Of a stretch of DNA of 37,419 nucleotides, positions 29,311-37,419 are shown in pieces (the first letter of the stretch is position 1; every line of letters starts with the position of its first letter). The DNA is from an uncultured Prevotellaceae bacterium (GTDB lineage: Bacteria; Bacteroidota; Bacteroidia; Bacteroidales; Bacteroidaceae). Below the pieces are notes generated by a model that saw only the letters and a list, made by a program, of their open reading frames with translations, searched no databases and was not told where the DNA came from. The position numbers and the translations under genes were made by a program. Location: assembly GCA_946406555.1 (NCBI GenBank), contig CAMJLB010000015.1, positions 1 through 37,419 on the forward strand, in the 5' to 3' direction.

Positions 29311-29335
29311 AAAAAGGAATCACCGTTGTGATTCC
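29311..29335 (-). terminator. intrinsic terminator of topB
   Basis: GGAATCAC (29316-29323) and GTGATTCC (29328-29335) form a perfect 8-base stem with a 4-base loop. Read on the minus strand it is followed directly by TTTTT (29311-29315). It lies about 50 bases beyond the topB stop. On the plus strand no T-run follows, so it serves the minus-strand operon. Confidence 0.75.
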
Positions 29336-29383
29336 CATATTCATAAAACTCCTCAGCGAGCACTTCAAACAAACCTTGTGTCT

Positions 29384-31540
29384 CTATTCGAAAGATTTTC
29401 GGAAGGTACATCCTTGTTTCCATTCTGAGCATCCGTATGCCGTTTTTCCCTTTATAACGTGCCCTTTTCCGCAAAGCGGACAAGGCTGGCCTATCAGTGA
29501 GTCTTGATTTTCTACAGCAGTAGCAGAGGGTGGAGTGGTTTCGGTCTTGGCCTTCTTTGCAGTACGAGTTTTCTTGATGGGCATTTCTCCTTGTTTAGCC
29601 TCTGTTTTCTGAGCGTTTTTTCCCGTCGGGGCAGATTCTTTCTTTTTTTCCTCTTCGGTGACGGTTACGCGACGATTGCTTTGGTCGGCTATCACCTGCC
29701 TTACAATTTCGGCCACTTGGGTCTTCAGTTCGTCGATAAAGAGTGTGGCATCATATTTTTGCGACTCAATGTCGCGAAGTTTCTTTTCCCAGATGCCTGT
29801 CAGCTCGGCGCTCTTCAGCAGTTCTTCGTGAATGAGATCTATGAGTTCGATGCCTGTCGGTGTAGCCACGAGGTTCTTTCGCTCCTTCCTGATATAGTGG
29901 CGCTTAAATAGCGTCTCGATGATGGCGGCCCGTGTAGATGGGCGTCCTATTCCGTTCTCCTTGAGAGCGGCTCTAAGGGTCTCGTCATCGACCAGTTTCC
30001 CTGCGGTCTCCATGGCGCGGAGCAATGTAGCTTCGGTGTAGTGCTTGGGTGGTGTTGTTTGTTTCTCGGTCAGGGTGGGTGTGTGTGGTCCGCTTTCGCC
30101 CTTGTTAAATTCGGGCAGCGTGCGCTCTTCCTCATCGGGCTTGCGCTCATCAGCATCGTCGGCCTGGGAGTCTTTGGCGTAGACGGCACGCCAGCCAAGA
30201 GCAAGGATGGTGCGGCCGGTGACCTTGAAGGAGATTGCCGCGATGGAATCGCGGCCCACAGAGACGGCTTCGCTTTGAGGGGTGGCTTCGCCTTCTACCA
30301 CGCCCAGCACGGTGGTCTGTGCAAACAGACAGTCGGGGTAGAATGCAGCAATGAAACGGCGGGCCACGAGGTCGAAGACCCGTTGCTGCATATCAGTAAG
30401 CCCCTGTGGAGGCACGCCAGTGGGGATGATGGCATGGTGGTCGGTGACCTTCGATGAGTCGAACACTTTCTTCGATTTTGGCAGAGGCTTTCCTCCAAGG
30501 GGCTTCACCAGTTCAGCGTATGGAGCCTGTGCGGCGAAGCGTGTCTGAAAGAGTCCGTTCATGATCTGCGGGCATTTAGGATAGACATCGTCGCTGAGGA
30601 AGGTGGTGTCGACACGAGGATAGGTGGTGAGCTTCATCTCGTATAGCTGCTGTATGATGTTGAGCGTCGTCTCTGCCGAAAAGCCGTACTTCTTGTTGCA
30701 GTCTACCTGCAGCGAGGTGAGGTCGTAGAGCGATGGCGGCGTCTCGCGGCCCTTCTTCTTTTGTATGTCGGTCACGGTGAAAGGGCGCCCCTCAATGGTG
30801 GCAAATGCCTTCTCTCCCTCTTCCTTGCTGCCAAAGCGCCCTGAAGTGGCAGTGAAAAGCGTGTCGCGATAGATGGTGGAGAGCACCCAGTAAGGTTCGG
30901 GCTTGAAGTTGTCTATTTCTTTTTGTCGCTTCACGATGAGCGCAAGGGTAGGTGTCTGCACCCGGCCAATGCTGAGCACTTGCCGTGAGCGCATCTGTCC
31001 ATATTTAATCGTGTAGAGGCGCGTGCAGTTGATGCCTAAGAGCCAGTCGCCCACGGCACGGCTAAGTCCGGCAAGATAGAGCGACTGGTATTCCGACTGG
31101 TCTTTCAGGTTGGCAAATCCCTCGCGTATGGCCTCGTCGGTCATCGACGATATCCATAGTCGCTTCACTGGGCATTTTGCCTGTGCCTTCTGCATGACCC
31201 ATCGCTGAATGAGTTCTCCCTCCTGTCCGGCATCGCCGCAGTTGATGATGCCGTCGGCTTGCTGCATAAGCCGTTCGATGGTGGCAAACTGCTTTTTTAC
31301 ACCCACGTCTTCTTTCAGTCGTATGCCAAAGCGAGGTGGAATCATGGGTAGCGAAGAAAGGGCCCAGGCCTTCCAAAGGGGAGTATAGTCTTCGGGCATC
31401 TTCAGTTCGCACAAATGTCCAAATGTCCACGTCACCTGATAACCGTTTCCCTCCATATATCCATCGTGTGAGGCAGTCGCCCCTAATATGCGTGCTATGT
31501 CTTTGCCCACGCTGGGCTTTTCTGCTATACAAACAATCAT
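29384..31540 (-). CDS. topB: DNA topoisomerase III (type IA)
   Basis: Type IA topoisomerase that cuts and passes single strands, decatenating replication and recombination intermediates. The 718-residue product starts with a TOPRIM domain (MIVCIAEKPSVGKDIARIL). The barrel region carries SIGRVQTPTLALIVKRQ and the catalytic tyrosine Y307 in TTYPRVDTTFLSDD. The C-terminal half has the GIGRPSTRAAIIETLFKR signature. A Lys-rich linker then leads to a single zinc finger (CPLCGKGHVIKG to CSEWKQGC). It is longer than E. coli TopB (653) because of this tail. The TOPRIM DxD motif reads D103-A-G105, so the second Asp is missing. It ends the minus-strand run behind the MATE gene, 103 bases downstream of it. 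Confidence 0.96.
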   Translation of the reverse strand: MIVCIAEKPSVGKDIARILGATASHDGYMEGNGYQVTWTFGHLCELKMPEDYTPLWKAWALSSLPMIPPRFGIRLKEDVGVKKQFATIERLMQQADGIINCGDAGQEGELIQRWVMQKAQAKCPVKRLWISSMTDEAIREGFANLKDQSEYQSLYLAGLSRAVGDWLLGINCTRLYTIKYGQMRSRQVLSIGRVQTPTLALIVKRQKEIDNFKPEPYWVLSTIYRDTLFTATSGRFGSKEEGEKAFATIEGRPFTVTDIQKKKGRETPPSLYDLTSLQVDCNKKYGFSAETTLNIIQQLYEMKLTTYPRVDTTFLSDDVYPKCPQIMNGLFQTRFAAQAPYAELVKPLGGKPLPKSKKVFDSSKVTDHHAIIPTGVPPQGLTDMQQRVFDLVARRFIAAFYPDCLFAQTTVLGVVEGEATPQSEAVSVGRDSIAAISFKVTGRTILALGWRAVYAKDSQADDADERKPDEEERTLPEFNKGESGPHTPTLTEKQTTPPKHYTEATLLRAMETAGKLVDDETLRAALKENGIGRPSTRAAIIETLFKRHYIRKERKNLVATPTGIELIDLIHEELLKSAELTGIWEKKLRDIESQKYDATLFIDELKTQVAEIVRQVIADQSNRRVTVTEEEKKKESAPTGKNAQKTEAKQGEMPIKKTRTAKKAKTETTPPSATAVENQDSLIGQPCPLCGKGHVIKGKTAYGCSEWKQGCTFRKSFE

Positions 31541-31643: not shown

Positions 31644-33020
31644 CTATCTATTCAGCCCTTTTTGCCAGTTGCCTCTGAACAGTCGTGCCAGGAAGAGGCA
31701 TCCTCGGCAACTCAGGTCGATGGCCATAGCCGTCCATACGCCGCGCAATCCATAAATGGGTGCCATCCATGCAGCCAGCGAAAGCCTTATTCCCCACATA
31801 CTTGTCAGACTGATGATGGCAGGCACGAGTGTGTCGCCGGCGCCTATGAGCACACCATTGGTTACTATCATGGCCGCAAACATCGGCTCGGCCCATGCCT
31901 CGATGCGCAGTGCGGCGGCTCCCTCGCTGATGATGGCGTCTACGGGTGTCATCACTGCCATCAGTTCTGGTGCAAAGGCATACATGAGTATGGCCATGCA
32001 GGTCATGATGGTCATGCCCATTGCCACCGACATGTATGCAAACGAGCGCGTGAGTTGTGGCTGCTTTGCGCCGATGCCCTGTCCTACCAGCGTGGTGGCG
32101 GCCTCGGCAATGCCGTATCCTGGCATATAGCAGAGGCTCTCTACGGTGATGGCCATCGAGTTGGCCGCTATGGCCACGGTGCCCAATGGTGCCACGATGA
32201 TGGTGCTCACGATTTGTGCCGATCCCATGAGCAGATGTTGAAGCCCCATGGGGGCTCCGATTTTAATGGCCGTTTGGATGGTGTCTTCGCGTGGACGGAA
32301 TGAGCCGGGATGCCCTACCAGACAAAGCATGTCGCTGCGTACCAGCAGAAAATAGAGCATGAGCATGGCCGTGACGAAGATGGCTACGCCCGTGCCCATG
32401 GCAGCACCGGCCACGCCATAGTCAAGGAGGTAGATGAACACATAGTTGAATGCTACATCCATGCAGCACATGGCGATGTTCAGCATCGAGGGAATCTTCA
32501 TGTTGCCTGAGCATTTCAGCATTGAGCCGGCCAGTCCTTCCAGTTGGAAGAACACACCACTCAATGCGATGATGAGGAAGTAGAGCGATGCATCGTGCGC
32601 TATATCGGGCGTTCCTCCCAGCCAGTAGGGTAGGAGGCGGTGAATGGCGATTCCCAGTGAGCAGAGGGCGAGACTCCATATTGTGCTGCAAATCAGACTC
32701 TGTCGCAGTACGCGGCGTGCCGCCTCGAAATCCTTCGCCCCAATGAAGTGGGCCACCTGTACCGAGAAACCCATGGAGACGGCAGATCCCAGACCACCCA
32801 TGAGCCATGTGGTGCTTTCTACCAACCCTACCGACGCGGTGGCTTTTTCGCCCAGATGTCCTACCATGGCATAGTCGATGAAGAACATCACGATGCTTGA
32901 TATCTGTGCGAGTATGCCGGGTATAGATAAGTTTATGATGAGGCGCAGCTTTTCGGCTTGCGTCATCTTGCGCCCTTCTCTTATATAAGACAGTAGGTCT
33001 TGATTCTCTTTCTTTGCCAT
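31644..33020 (-). CDS. MATE-family multidrug/organic-cation efflux transporter
   Basis: The 458-residue inner-membrane protein has about twelve helices in two homologous halves, as in MATE exporters that use Na+ or H+ gradients. Typical segments are LSIPGILAQISSIVMFFIDYAMVGHLGEKA at the first helix, MGFSVQVAHFIGAKDFEAARR, and in the second half the GQGIGAKQPQLTRSFAYMSV counterpart. Length is normal. Its start lies 8 bases after the stop of the AAA gene, so the two are probably co-transcribed. The substrate cannot be read from sequence. The gap to topB (31541-31643) holds no promoter or terminator I can defend. Confidence 0.94.
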   Translation of the reverse strand: MAKKENQDLLSYIREGRKMTQAEKLRLIINLSIPGILAQISSIVMFFIDYAMVGHLGEKATASVGLVESTTWLMGGLGSAVSMGFSVQVAHFIGAKDFEAARRVLRQSLICSTIWSLALCSLGIAIHRLLPYWLGGTPDIAHDASLYFLIIALSGVFFQLEGLAGSMLKCSGNMKIPSMLNIAMCCMDVAFNYVFIYLLDYGVAGAAMGTGVAIFVTAMLMLYFLLVRSDMLCLVGHPGSFRPREDTIQTAIKIGAPMGLQHLLMGSAQIVSTIIVAPLGTVAIAANSMAITVESLCYMPGYGIAEAATTLVGQGIGAKQPQLTRSFAYMSVAMGMTIMTCMAILMYAFAPELMAVMTPVDAIISEGAAALRIEAWAEPMFAAMIVTNGVLIGAGDTLVPAIISLTSMWGIRLSLAAWMAPIYGLRGVWTAMAIDLSCRGCLFLARLFRGNWQKGLNR

Positions 33021-33028
33021 TTCTCGTG

Positions 33029-36000
33029 TCAGAAACCTATTCGGCTTGTTTTCAAGCTGCGTTGCTGCTCAATTTCCTGCAAGTCGGCCAATGTCACTTC
33101 ATTGGTCTGTCCTGTTTGTCCGGCAATGCGCAGTCGTGCCGACTGTGCCATGGTCTGTGCGTGCATCTGTATTGTGCGTGCGTTGACGGGACTATTGCGG
33201 GTTGCCTGCCGGTGCAGGTTTTCTACGTAGTGCGTCAGGTACTCGTCGGCTTCTGCCGAGAGCGTCAGCCGGTAGTCGGAAGAAAGCATTTGCCGGAGCA
33301 GTTGCATGAGCTGTGGTGCCGTAAAGTCGTCGAAGATGACCGAGTGGTAGAGCGATGCAAAGCCGTTGAGTGCCAGCTGTCGCAGCACGTCATCGTTGCT
33401 TTCGCCTACTTCGGCAAAGACGATGGCCGTTTGTTGTTTGGTCTCCTTGATTTTGTTCACCAGCCAGGTACGTATGGAGTCGGTTGGTTGGTTGCGGTAG
33501 CGTGGCGAGTCCATATCCATGAATAGCAGGCCGTCGGTGGCACGCTTGAGTGCCTTCTCGAGTGTGTCGTACATGTCTCGCGAGTTCAGCTCCTCTATAT
33601 TCAGCGTCACGGTGTGGCCTCGTTTCAGCAGCCCCAGGCCCTGCATCAGCCTGCCCAACAGCTCTGCCACGGTGCTTTTGCCCGTGCCAGTGTTGCCGAT
33701 AAAGTTCCAGTAGAGCATTTTTGAACTGGCGGTAAGCGAGCCCGTCTGGCGTTCCATTCGCACGGTGGTGACATAGCCGTGCAATGCCTGCTTGGCCTGC
33801 TCTACACCCACCAGCTGGTCCAGGTCGTGCAGGGCACTCTTGAGAATGCTCTCGTCGATGGGCCCCAGTTTCCCTTGTAAGCCGTCGTGCCGGGGAATGT
33901 CGCAAAGCTCAATGGTCTTCAGCATCTCGTCGGTGAGCTGTTCTGCTGGCAGCTTGTTCAGCCGCTGGCTCATGGCAGGAATGATGTGCGACTTGAGCAG
34001 GCGCGTCACGAAGCGGCCATTGCCGAAATGCTCGTCTTTCTGGTTATATTCATCGATAATGTATTGCGAGAGTGCCCTTTCGGCCTCGTCGGTCAGGTGG
34101 TATTGTTCCTTATCGAGCACCAGCTTGCCTATGCGCAGCAGTTGGTCGGGCGAGTAGTCGTCGAAGTGGAAGAAGTAGGAGAAACGCGATTTCAGTCCAG
34201 GGTTCGATTCTATCATGCGTTTCATCTCGTTGGTATATCCTGCCAGGATCACGATCATGTCGGTTTCTTCCAGGCTTAGGTAGGTGAGCAACGTCTCGAT
34301 GACGCGCATGCCGAAGTCTCTGTTGTCGTCGCTTTTCACGAAGAGGTTGTAGGCCTCGTCGATGAAGAGCACGCCTCCCGATGCCCGCTGTATGGCATTG
34401 AGGGTGTTCTTCTCTGTATCGCCAATGTATTGGCCCACAAGTTTCGAACGGTCGGTCTGCACCAGATGGCCGCTCGATAATGCGCCTATTCCTCGATAGA
34501 TCTCGCCTAAATATTCGGCAATGGTGGTCTTGCCAGTGCCGGGGTTGCCGGTAAACACCATGTGCATGGGGGGCATACGGTTGTAGAAGCCACGGTCGGC
34601 ACGTATCTTATTGAGGCGTACCAGCGAAGTGTGATTGATGATGCTCTGCTTCACGTTGTCAAGCCCGATGAGGCTCTCCAGTTTCTTCAGTGGCACTGAA
34701 GGGTCTCTCTCCTCTGCCTGTGGAATGTCGTCGGCCACGATGAGGTTCATGTCGGCGAGTGGCGGGGGGGCAAAAGGCTGCAGCTGTTCGGTGCTGATGG
34801 TGCGGCGCACTAAGCGTGGCAGTATCTCGTCGTCGATGGTCTGGCGGGCCATGTACATATTGGCAAAGTTCATGCCACGCAGGCTATAGGCTCTTTCAAA
34901 GTAGTGGAAGAGCTTCTTCCGTGCCTCTTCCTCGAGTCGGAAGTTCATGTCTTTCAGCCATTTCACGCTTAGCCGTGTCATTACCTCTGGCTCCACGTCG
35001 TCGAAGTCGTAGAAAGTGTAGAACAGTTCGCGGGCAGGCTCACACATTTTGATGAGTTCTTCCATCCGGCCTTTTCCGCCAAGCAGCACTACCGTTATGT
35101 TTTTCATCTTCAGCAGTTTGTTGGCCAGTATCTCTATGCCGGTGAGCGACCCCACCGCTCCTTTCAGTGCCAGTGCCTCGGCATTGTTTATCACGAGCAG
35201 GTTGTCGGCATTACTGTCGAGTGTCTCTTCCACTTTTGGTGAATATCCATTGGTGGGGTCGAGCATGTCAATGGCATTCAGTTCTGCAATGTCTTGTGCA
35301 GTCCCGTCTTCCACGAGCTTCTTTCCCAACCGTTGCGCCGCTGTTCGCTTGCCAGTGCCTTTTTTGCCTGTCAGCACCAGATGCCGGCGCTTCCATTCAA
35401 TGGGACTGCCGGGCCGGTTGGTGTCGAATACGCGTCGGCGGTCCAGGTAGTCAAGCAAGTTTGCAAAGCCATTGGGCATGAGTATGGGACCGTCGCCCTC
35501 TTCCATTGGCTGCTCGTCGGCCACGATGAAGGGTTCCAGTTCTTTCTCGCTTGTCTGTGGGCGGATCTTGCTCAAAGGACATTTTAAAAAGGTTTTTCCT
35601 GCCACGGTAAAAACCAGGTAGGGCTCTTTGCCATAATACTTCCTGTCGGGGTCTGCTCCAAGATGGAAACTGATGGTGGCTGTATCGTCGTCGGCATAGA
35701 GGTTCAGTACCTGAAAATCGAAGGCCGGCATGATGTTGCCAGGTTTTTCAAACAGCTCCTCGTCTTCTGTCAGATAGGCATAGTAAGCACCCATCACGAT
35801 ATAGAAGTTATCTTTATTCAAGTGTCTGAAGGTTAGGCTGATAGGCATGCTTTCCTTCCCTTTTTTCTTGAAATACGGATCGTAGCTCAGTTGAATGGGC
35901 TTTACCACGCGGTTCACGTCGGTGGGCAGACAGGCTATCTGGAAGAGCCTTGTTTCCAATACCTTTCCGTCTATAGATAGTTCGGCAGTATACTCATCAA

Positions 36001-36325
36001 CGAAGTTTTCTTTTGCAGGTTTGGGCAGATGGTTGGCGGTATTTATCTGTGTATAGAAGAAGCCGGTGGAATTGGTGTTCACCTCGTTGTCGATTGAATC
36101 GATGATGAGATTCTTGTTGTTGGTGGCATTGCTGTAGTTTGTCCCTTCATACACGCGGAAGCGCATGTTAAGCGTGTCTTCGGCATTGGCTGTGCCCCTG
36201 ACTACAAACGAAAGCGTGTAGTCAGGGGACCAGGGAAAAAACATGTCGTCTTCACTATTGTACCAGTCTTTCAGTCGCTGGTCGAAGCAGACGCAGAAAA
36301 GCTCTAAATTGATATGTTGGTTCAT
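33029..36325 (-). CDS. triple-AAA module protein (CbxX/SpoVK-like) with novel N-terminal region
   Basis: A 1098-residue cytoplasmic protein with three AAA modules. Module 1 has Walker A GKKGTGKRT (320-328), but its Walker B reads LLVINNAEA with Asn in place of the DE pair. Module 2 is canonical and close to CbxX/CfqX/SpoVK ATPases: GNPGTGKTT (593-601), VLFIDEAYN with D656-E657, LAGYTNEMKRMIESNPGLKSRF. Module 3 has GNTGTGKST (877-885), but Walker B is LLFMD937-MD, with Met in place of the catalytic Glu. Residues 1 to about 290 are a beta-rich region I do not recognise (MNQHINLELFCVCFDQRLKD at the start). Its ATG lies 5 bases after the flotillin stop and its own stop is 8 bases before the MATE start. 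A remodelling motor working with the flotillin is inferred from this pairing. Confidence 0.88.
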   Translation of the reverse strand: MNQHINLELFCVCFDQRLKDWYNSEDDMFFPWSPDYTLSFVVRGTANAEDTLNMRFRVYEGTNYSNATNNKNLIIDSIDNEVNTNSTGFFYTQINTANHLPKPAKENFVDEYTAELSIDGKVLETRLFQIACLPTDVNRVVKPIQLSYDPYFKKKGKESMPISLTFRHLNKDNFYIVMGAYYAYLTEDEELFEKPGNIMPAFDFQVLNLYADDDTATISFHLGADPDRKYYGKEPYLVFTVAGKTFLKCPLSKIRPQTSEKELEPFIVADEQPMEEGDGPILMPNGFANLLDYLDRRRVFDTNRPGSPIEWKRRHLVLTGKKGTGKRTAAQRLGKKLVEDGTAQDIAELNAIDMLDPTNGYSPKVEETLDSNADNLLVINNAEALALKGAVGSLTGIEILANKLLKMKNITVVLLGGKGRMEELIKMCEPARELFYTFYDFDDVEPEVMTRLSVKWLKDMNFRLEEEARKKLFHYFERAYSLRGMNFANMYMARQTIDDEILPRLVRRTISTEQLQPFAPPPLADMNLIVADDIPQAEERDPSVPLKKLESLIGLDNVKQSIINHTSLVRLNKIRADRGFYNRMPPMHMVFTGNPGTGKTTIAEYLGEIYRGIGALSSGHLVQTDRSKLVGQYIGDTEKNTLNAIQRASGGVLFIDEAYNLFVKSDDNRDFGMRVIETLLTYLSLEETDMIVILAGYTNEMKRMIESNPGLKSRFSYFFHFDDYSPDQLLRIGKLVLDKEQYHLTDEAERALSQYIIDEYNQKDEHFGNGRFVTRLLKSHIIPAMSQRLNKLPAEQLTDEMLKTIELCDIPRHDGLQGKLGPIDESILKSALHDLDQLVGVEQAKQALHGYVTTVRMERQTGSLTASSKMLYWNFIGNTGTGKSTVAELLGRLMQGLGLLKRGHTVTLNIEELNSRDMYDTLEKALKRATDGLLFMDMDSPRYRNQPTDSIRTWLVNKIKETKQQTAIVFAEVGESNDDVLRQLALNGFASLYHSVIFDDFTAPQLMQLLRQMLSSDYRLTLSAEADEYLTHYVENLHRQATRNSPVNARTIQMHAQTMAQSARLRIAGQTGQTNEVTLADLQEIEQQRSLKTSRIGF

Positions 36326-36330
36326 CTATT

Positions 36331-37419
36331 TTATTTGTCGTTGCCGGTGATGTTGTCTATGGCTTCTCTTGCCTCATCGTTCAGGCTTATGTTTCGGTTC
36401 ACCTTGGCATCGATGGTTCCAGCGCGCATGATGTCGGCCATGTCTACGCCAGTGGCACTCTTTAGCACGTCGAAGGCCTGCTTGATGGCCACGGGCACAC
36501 CTCCGCTGATGGCGGTGATGCCTGTACCGTCGCCTGAGCCGCTGTAGATGCTCACGTCCTTAATCGATGCAATGGGCTTAGCCACGTTTTCTACCACCTG
36601 CGGCAGCACCTCGATCATCATCTGCATCACTGCGGCATTGTTATATTTTTTATAGGCTTCTGCCTTCTTGTCCATGGCCAGAGCCTCGGCTTCACCTTTC
36701 TTCTGTATGGCGTAGGCTTCGGCCTCTCCTTTGGCTTTTATGCCCGCAGCCTCCTGCTCCAAACGGTAGCGTGCGGCATCGCTCTCGGCGTTCTGGGCCA
36801 GGGCTCTTTGTTCGGCTTCATATCTTTGGGCCTCGGCCACGCGCTTGCGCTGTTCCAGGTCGGCGGCAGCGTCTATCTCTACCTTGTATTTGTCGGCATC
36901 GGCTTTCTTTTCCACCTCAGCAGCCAGTTGGTTCTGCTTGATTTCTATCTGTTCACGAGAGAGTATCTGCTCACGTTTGGTCTTCTCGATCTCGGCCTCA
37001 ACGGTCTTCACGTTAATCGTCTTCTGCTGTTCTTGCTGCTGTATGGCATAGGCCGCATCGGCATCGGCCTGGGCTGTGTCAGCTTCTTTCTTAAGGGCAG
37101 CTCGGCGCAGGGCCAGTTCGTTGTTTTTCACGGCTATGGCAGTGTCGGCATCTACACGGGCATCGTTGCTATCCTTGTCGGCCTTGCTCACTTCGATCTT
37201 CACGTCGCGTTCGGCAATGGCACGGTTGATGGCTGCGTCTTTCTTGATTTTTGCCGTGTTGTCGGCACCCAGGTCTTTTATCAGTCCTTCACGGTCGGTC
37301 ACGTTCTGAATGTTGCAAGAGATGATTTCTATGCCCAACTTAGCCATGTCGGGCTGAGCCTTGGTCATCACCTGGTCGGAGAAACCGTCGCGGTCGGTGT
37401 TCAGAGAGCGGAGGTCGAG
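36331..37419 (-). CDS. flotillin-like SPFH-domain protein (partial, N-terminus beyond window)
   Basis: The frame stays open to the last base of the window (LDLRSLNTDRDGFSDQV precedes the start given in the ORF track, which is an internal GTG). So 362 C-terminal residues are seen and the gene enters from the right. The visible part begins late in the SPFH/band-7 domain (MAKLGIEIISCNIQNVTDREG). A long Ala/Glu/Lys coiled coil follows with repeated EAEA-type segments (GEAEAYAIQKKGEAEALAMD), then the flotillin C-terminal helix region (VMQMMIEVLPQVVENVAKPI). Flotillins assemble membrane microdomain scaffolds. An N-terminal membrane anchor would lie outside the window. Confidence 0.9.
   Translation of the reverse strand, partial: LDLRSLNTDRDGFSDQVMTKAQPDMAKLGIEIISCNIQNVTDREGLIKDLGADNTAKIKKDAAINRAIAERDVKIEVSKADKDSNDARVDADTAIAVKNNELALRRAALKKEADTAQADADAAYAIQQQEQQKTINVKTVEAEIEKTKREQILSREQIEIKQNQLAAEVEKKADADKYKVEIDAAADLEQRKRVAEAQRYEAEQRALAQNAESDAARYRLEQEAAGIKAKGEAEAYAIQKKGEAEALAMDKKAEAYKKYNNAAVMQMMIEVLPQVVENVAKPIASIKDVSIYSGSGDGTGITAISGGVPVAIKQAFDVLKSATGVDMADIMRAGTIDAKVNRNISLNDEAREAIDNITGNDK

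What the first reader, a model, noticed from the sequence alone, without database searches (positions are those of the whole stretch)
33029..37419. Flotillin paired with a triple-AAA protein in a tight operon
The flotillin-like SPFH gene ends 5 bases before a 1098-residue protein with three AAA modules, and a MATE gene starts 8 bases after that. The spacing implies co-transcription. CbxX/SpoVK-type AAA proteins remodel protein complexes and flotillins build membrane scaffolds, so the pair may form a membrane-associated remodelling machine. I know of no described system with this exact pairing. Functional coupling is inferred from gene order alone.
Basis: partly seen in the sequence, partly recalled or inferred. 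Interest (0 to 1): 0.6.

Follow-up and report, generated by a model that had tools for sequence, protein, structure and literature searches.

The report
Flotillin gene beside triple-AAA protein
A gut Prevotella places a gene for a three-module, CbbX-like protein-remodelling motor between a membrane-scaffold (flotillin) gene and a transporter gene; the pairing is rare and rests on gene order, but it was put together separately in one other species, so the two proteins may work together.

Summary
A flotillin gene, a 1098-residue triple-AAA gene and a MATE gene lie on one strand with gaps of 5 and 8 bases. The window is a whole contig; the missing flotillin start is on contig C52 behind a divergent transpeptidase gene, with no NfeD gene.

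The pairing is not a conserved system. In 398 Prevotella genomes flotillin occurs in 80 and the AAA in 15. Both occur in 4 (3 expected), adjacent only here. Flotillin stands directly before MATE, without AAA, in at least 10 genomes, so the AAA looks inserted between them.

Two results keep coupling alive. The AAA's closest relative (L046, 70%) sits in an operon DUF1963–flotillin–TPR–AAA at another locus. The two AAAs are sisters but the two flotillins are not (p-AU 0.009), which suggests the pair formed twice.

The AAA belongs to a Bacteroidales family of 34 aligned proteins with one catalytic and two degenerate AAA modules. In other clades its partners are TPR, DUF1963 and DUF4062 genes; DUF4062 was recently reported as an antiphage NADase.

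Best reading: a CbbX-type remodeller recruited to a flotillin platform, resembling HflKC–FtsH in principle but not a member. A flotillin–AAA+ operon with a different AAA+ is already published.

The parts
36331..37419 (-). FloT-type flotillin (SPFH), C-terminal 362 residues; the first ~137 residues with the membrane anchor lie on contig G000:C52:2-454 (-)
33029..36325 (-). 1098-aa protein: two N-terminal beta-sandwich domains and three CbbX/SpoVK/EccA-type AAA modules
35516..36325 (-). N-terminal region, residues 1-270: two tandem beta-sandwich (Ig-like) domains, no Pfam match; a homologous region is present only in some family members
34781..35473 (-). AAA1 (residues ~285-515): P-loop kept, Walker B acidic pair lost (INNAE)
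33896..34699 (-). AAA2 (residues ~543-810): the one canonical module (GNPGTGKT, FIDEAY, SNPGLKSRF), essentially invariant across 34 relatives
33056..33862 (-). AAA3 (residues ~822-1090): P-loop kept (TGTGKS), catalytic Glu of Walker B replaced (DMD/DLD) in every relative in which the segment is present
31644..33020 (-). MATE-family efflux transporter; in at least 10 other Prevotella genomes its orthologue follows flotillin directly, without the AAA gene
29384..31540 (-). DNA topoisomerase III, 103 bases downstream of MATE on the same strand; possible end of the transcription unit (terminator-like hairpin at 29315-29336), membership not shown

Best explanation
The AAA gene is a member of a Bacteroidales-wide, patchily distributed family of triple-AAA CbbX-type remodellers. 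In this lineage it was placed between a resident flotillin gene and its MATE neighbour and is read with them. Proposed working: FloT forms a membrane cage or platform; the AAA protein assembles into a multi-ring ATPase in which only the middle ring hydrolyses ATP, while the outer two bind nucleotide or give structure; the two N-terminal beta-sandwich domains dock onto FloT or onto clients gathered there; and the motor remodels or extracts those clients. It would thus resemble HflKC-FtsH or prohibitin-m-AAA, but without a protease. Shown: gene order, domain make-up, conserved one-active-module pattern, a second occurrence of the operon, and flotillin/AAA tree conflict. Inferred: co-transcription, ring assembly, binding to FloT, remodelling activity, membrane clients.
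For: Gap of 5 bases. Second operon DUF1963-FloT-TPR-AAA in L046, the nearest AAA relative (70%), where that FloT is the only one in the genome. AAA tree: window+L046 sisters at 100% SH-aLRT. FloT tree: the same two genomes as a clade rejected, p-AU 0.0095. FloT kin of L046 keep FloT at another conserved locus (UvrD-FloT). So the pair appears to have been brought together twice; chance of lying within two genes is about 0.0015 for the one independent case. Catalytic asymmetry conserved across the 34-protein alignment. Best solved-structure match is CbbX, a known protein remodeller. SPFH-AAA and flotillin-AAA+ operon precedents (PMC11237479; PMC2636767).
Against: Across the genus the two genes co-occur at chance (4 vs 3.0, P = 0.35) and are adjacent only here. 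All more distant AAA relatives lack a neighbouring FloT, and the five other AAA genomes tested have no FloT at all. Most FloT genomes lack the AAA. Only two instances exist, so the case is thin. The FloT tree has weak inner support.
Confidence: 0.4

Rival explanations
1. Incidental neighbour: the AAA gene moves around Bacteroidales genomes and landed in a permissive spot between FloT and MATE, where it shares a transcript but no function with them.
For: AAA is patchy (15 of 398 genomes) and its neighbours change from clade to clade. FloT sites also change, and unrelated genes take the same downstream slot in other genomes: MATE, an epimerase-like gene, a CotH/lamin-tail protein. FloT/AAA co-occurrence is at chance.
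Against: The nearest relative shows the same association at an unrelated site with a different FloT lineage.
Confidence: 0.37
2. The AAA protein is chiefly part of a stress or anti-phage module. In sister clades its partners are TPR, DUF1963 and a DUF4062-NTPase; here FloT takes over the partner role as membrane anchor or sensor.
For: TPR-DUF1963-DUF4062-AAA order in 8 loci forming one clade, and DUF4062 with AAA in L047. L046 keeps DUF1963 and TPR and has FloT but no DUF4062 in the operon. DUF4062 proteins are TIR-like NADases giving phage defence (PMC13174449).
Against: DUF4062, DUF1963 and a significant TPR-protein match are absent from the window's own genome, itself about 85% complete. 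PADLOC gives only generic AAA or kinase matches.
Confidence: 0.15
3. The AAA protein works with the MATE transporter, and FloT is secondary.
For: AAA followed by MATE on the same strand in L049 as well (57% AAA), in a genome with no FloT detected.
Against: MATE is near-ubiquitous in the genus (305 of 398) and usually without AAA. L046's AAA has no MATE-family hit beside it in the locus examined.
Confidence: 0.08

Closest known systems
CbbX / SpoVK / EccA AAA+ group (TIGR02880, TIGR02881, TIGR03922)
   Same: All three AAA modules match these models; AAA2 has the full active site; best solved-structure matches by sequence and by fold are CbbX (3syk, 3zuh)
   Different: Three modules in one chain with two lacking catalytic residues, plus beta-sandwich N-domains; scores fall below the curated cut-offs of all three equivalog models (345/423, 329/459, 278/467 bits)
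Flotillin + AAA+ + YqiJ/YuaF operons of the PSP study (PMC11237479)
   Same: Flotillin beside an AAA+ ATPase gene in one operon, proposed for membrane-associated complex assembly
   Different: [quoted passage not shown] here CbbX-type modules, and no YuaF/NfeD gene adjacent
HflK/HflC-FtsH and prohibitin-m-AAA
   Same: SPFH scaffold working with an AAA+ motor
   Different: FtsH is a membrane-bound metalloprotease; this protein has no protease domain hit and the SPFH protein is flotillin-type
Flotillin-NfeD operons (YuaGF, YqiKJ; PMC2636767)
   Same: Flotillin of the FloT/YqiK type
   Different: No NfeD-like gene on either side; upstream gene is a divergent transpeptidase
Swarozyc DUF4062 defence (PMC13174449)
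   Same: DUF4062 genes are operon partners of this AAA family in other clades
   Different: No DUF4062 in the window's genome; AAA genes are not described as part of Swarozyc in the passages read

Membership tests
CbbX/SpoVK/EccA equivalogs | Whole-protein score above the curated cut-off | tested here: not met
   345.0, 328.5 and 278.3 bits against cut-offs 423.0, 459.3 and 466.7
CbbX-type AAA+ (superfamily level) | AAA domain with intact Walker A/B, C-terminal arginine region, AAA_lid_6 | tested here: met
   AAA2: PF00004 4.5e-24, PF17866 6.6e-15, FIDEAY and SNPGLKSRF (near-)invariant
FloT flotillin | Band_7/SPFH domain, flotillin C-terminal region, N-terminal membrane segment | tested here: met
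   Band_7 and Flot hits; FloT model 1.2e-63 on a truncated query, below the full-length cut-off; hydrophobic N-terminus read on C52
Flotillin-NfeD operon | Adjacent NfeD/YuaF gene | tested here: not met
   Downstream AAA; upstream divergent transpeptidase
HflKC-FtsH type complex | AAA partner carries an M41 protease domain and membrane segments | tested here: not met
   No peptidase family among the Pfam hits shown; modelled architecture is two beta-sandwiches and three AAA modules only
HflKC-FtsH type complex | Physical SPFH-AAA complex | not testable with these tools
   Needs biochemistry or a complex prediction
Ravi et al. [quoted passage not shown] YuaF gene present | tested here: not met
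   N-terminus is two beta-sandwiches, no propeller family hit; no YuaF gene adjacent
Swarozyc / DUF4062 module | DUF4062 gene in the genome | tested here: not met
   PF13271 absent from G000; genome ~85% complete

The most novel reading that the evidence does not exclude
The triple-AAA family is the shared motor of a modular Bacteroidales stress or conflict system whose partner differs by clade: a DUF4062 (TIR-like NADase) NTPase with TPR and DUF1963 proteins in one clade, a Sel1-repeat protein in another, and a flotillin in this one. In the flotillin version the motor would act at a membrane platform instead of on a soluble NADase.
Probability: 0.2. Interest if true: 0.6.

Novelty: new variant of a known kind. 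Interest (0 to 1): 0.36.

Why it matters
If the pair works together it would be an SPFH-AAA machine with a non-proteolytic CbbX-type motor, apart from HflKC-FtsH, and would give bacterial flotillins a candidate motor. The AAA family itself, with one live module between two conserved dead ones and clade-specific partners that include a recently reported NADase family, is an untested lead in the rumen and gut Bacteroidales where it is found.

Tried and rejected
NfeD upstream of flotillin: not there. General co-occurrence of FloT and AAA in the genus: at chance. DUF1963, DUF4062 or the TPR partner elsewhere in the own genome: none significant. AAA on viral contigs: none. Plasmids: only distant hits below 60% identity and none over 80% of the query. 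Phages: 11 distant hits; the best record (MT835894.1) is unannotated and I saw no obviously viral gene among its ORFs. MATE of window and L049 as one clade: neither shown nor rejected (p-AU 0.20). G376 has 3.5 kb between FloT and MATE, but the gene there is a CotH/lamin-tail protein, not an AAA. Foldseek on the N-domains gives only tandem Ig-like folds with low TM-scores.

Full report
What is there. On the minus strand the window holds a flotillin gene (36331-37419), an AAA gene (33029-36325) and a MATE gene (31644-33020), with gaps of 5 and 8 bases. Topoisomerase III follows 103 bases further, and a terminator-like hairpin lies after it. The window is the whole contig G000:C15 of a 2.97 Mb, 179-contig, about 85% complete genome; its relatives in named collections are rumen and gut Prevotella. 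The flotillin is cut by the contig end. Its N-terminus, with a hydrophobic segment, lies at the start of contig C52, overlapping the window end by 43 bases with 2 mismatches. Upstream of it is a divergent penicillin-binding-type transpeptidase. So flotillin is the first gene of the unit and no NfeD gene stands next to it.

The AAA protein. Sequence and structure prediction give two N-terminal beta-sandwich domains (residues 1-270; model pLDDT 78; tandem Ig-like folds with low TM-scores) followed by three AAA modules with lids. All three match CbbX/SpoVK/EccA models but below the curated cut-offs; the nearest solved structure is CbbX. A scan of 84,980 species genomes returned 33 relatives, nearly all Bacteroidales from rumen and gut. 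One of the peptide patterns used is the motif MPPMHMVF, which is invariant in the family, so the scan should be close to complete for members that keep it. In the 34-protein alignment the middle module is essentially invariant (GNPGTGKT, FIDEAY). The first keeps its P-loop in most members but lacks the Walker B acidic pair. The third keeps TGTGKS but has DMD or DLD where the catalytic glutamate should be. The family therefore has one hydrolysing module between two degenerate ones; the consequences for ring mechanics are inferred.

Is the pair conserved? In 398 genomes of the genus, flotillin (E<=1e-40) is in 80, the AAA (E<=1e-100) in 15 and both in 4, against 3.0 expected (P = 0.35); only the window genome has them adjacent. 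The closest flotillins (95%) are in G050, with no AAA, and G164, where flotillin is directly followed by MATE. Flotillin directly before MATE occurs in at least 10 genomes (G048, G126, G137, G145, G164, G189, G232, G261, G282, G322), in three of them followed by a cyclophilin gene. So the AAA gene most likely was inserted into a flotillin-MATE unit. Other genomes show other genes in the slot after flotillin.

The second instance. L046, whose AAA is the closest relative (70%), has DUF1963-flotillin-TPR-AAA on one strand inside what reads as an exopolysaccharide-type gene cluster, and that genome has a single flotillin. None of the tested flanking genes is shared with the window locus. In the AAA tree window and L046 are sisters with full support. 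In the flotillin tree L046 falls with G078, G066, G282 and G126 (100/99), and a window+L046 clade is rejected (p-AU 0.0095). Three of those relatives keep flotillin at another conserved locus behind a UvrD gene. The simplest reading is that AAA and flotillin came together twice, or that the flotillin copy was exchanged under a kept pairing. Either favours a functional link, but it is one independent case with a chance of about 0.0015. The third member of the clade, L049, has AAA followed by MATE and no flotillin in its genome.

What the rest of the family does. Context follows the AAA tree. One clade of eight loci has TPR-DUF1963-DUF4062/NTPase-AAA, in several cases continued by zinc-ribbon, kinase, zinc-ribbon-AAA and FHA/Sel1 genes. 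Another clade has a Sel1-repeat gene beside it. L047 has DUF4062 and a further conserved protein. DUF4062 was reported in a 2026 preprint as a TIR-like NADase with antiphage activity (PMC13174449). L046 keeps the DUF1963 and TPR genes of that cassette and adds flotillin. The window genome has none of these partners.

Known systems. Flotillins normally pair with NfeD/YuaF (PMC2636767). Flotillin + AAA+ (coiled coil, beta-propeller) + YuaF operons were described in PMC11237479. SPFH-AAA partnership is known for HflKC-FtsH (PMC2636767). No paper in the library joins CbbX and flotillin in an operon. This is therefore a rare new combination of a known kind of pairing, not a new conserved system.

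Verdict. Confidence is 0.40 for functional coupling and 0.37 for incidental insertion.

Noticed in passing
L050:3151-18965, L069:3561-19698, L070:556-14074, L051, L052, L073, L074, L076: Conserved multi-gene cassette TPR - DUF1963 - DUF4062/NTPase (~1357 aa) - triple AAA, often followed by zinc-ribbon, protein kinase, zinc-ribbon-AAA and FHA/Sel1 genes; a candidate uncharacterised stress or defence system, with only generic AAA/kinase PADLOC matches.
   Followed up: partly
L122:5842-14077 (G000:C18): The window's own genome carries a related module: FHA/zinc ribbon, quadruple CbbX-type AAA (1104 aa), kinase (1063 aa), double zinc ribbon (355 aa), beside a lon gene; similar ~1100-aa AAA proteins occur in several genus members.
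   Followed up: partly
L126:6166-9742, L140:6504-10074, L141:6445-10156: Flotillin - MATE - cyclophilin gene order in three Prevotella genomes, a more recurrent flotillin neighbourhood than the AAA pairing.
   Followed up: partly
L046:6638-7411, L050:3151-3855: The TPR partner protein ends in a strongly conserved tail (MGFCFxYWSAKRDLL...MNPRVxFD); it could be a docking or recognition tail for the AAA partner.
   Followed up: no
L047:7882-9930, L052:13507-15609, L053:5078-6985: A recurrent ~640-700 aa protein with hydrophobic N-terminus and no Pfam match next to DUF4062/AAA genes; by eye it resembles channel-like proteins with nucleotide-binding domains.
   Followed up: no
L157 (MT835894.1): A record labelled Bacteriophage sp. 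(human faeces) shows no obviously viral gene among its ORFs and encodes a distant member of the AAA family; probably a misassigned bacterial contig.
   Followed up: partly
window 37377-37419 and G000:C52:1-43: Contigs C15 and C52 overlap by 43 bases with two mismatches inside the flotillin gene, so the assembly break is probably strain variation.
   Followed up: yes
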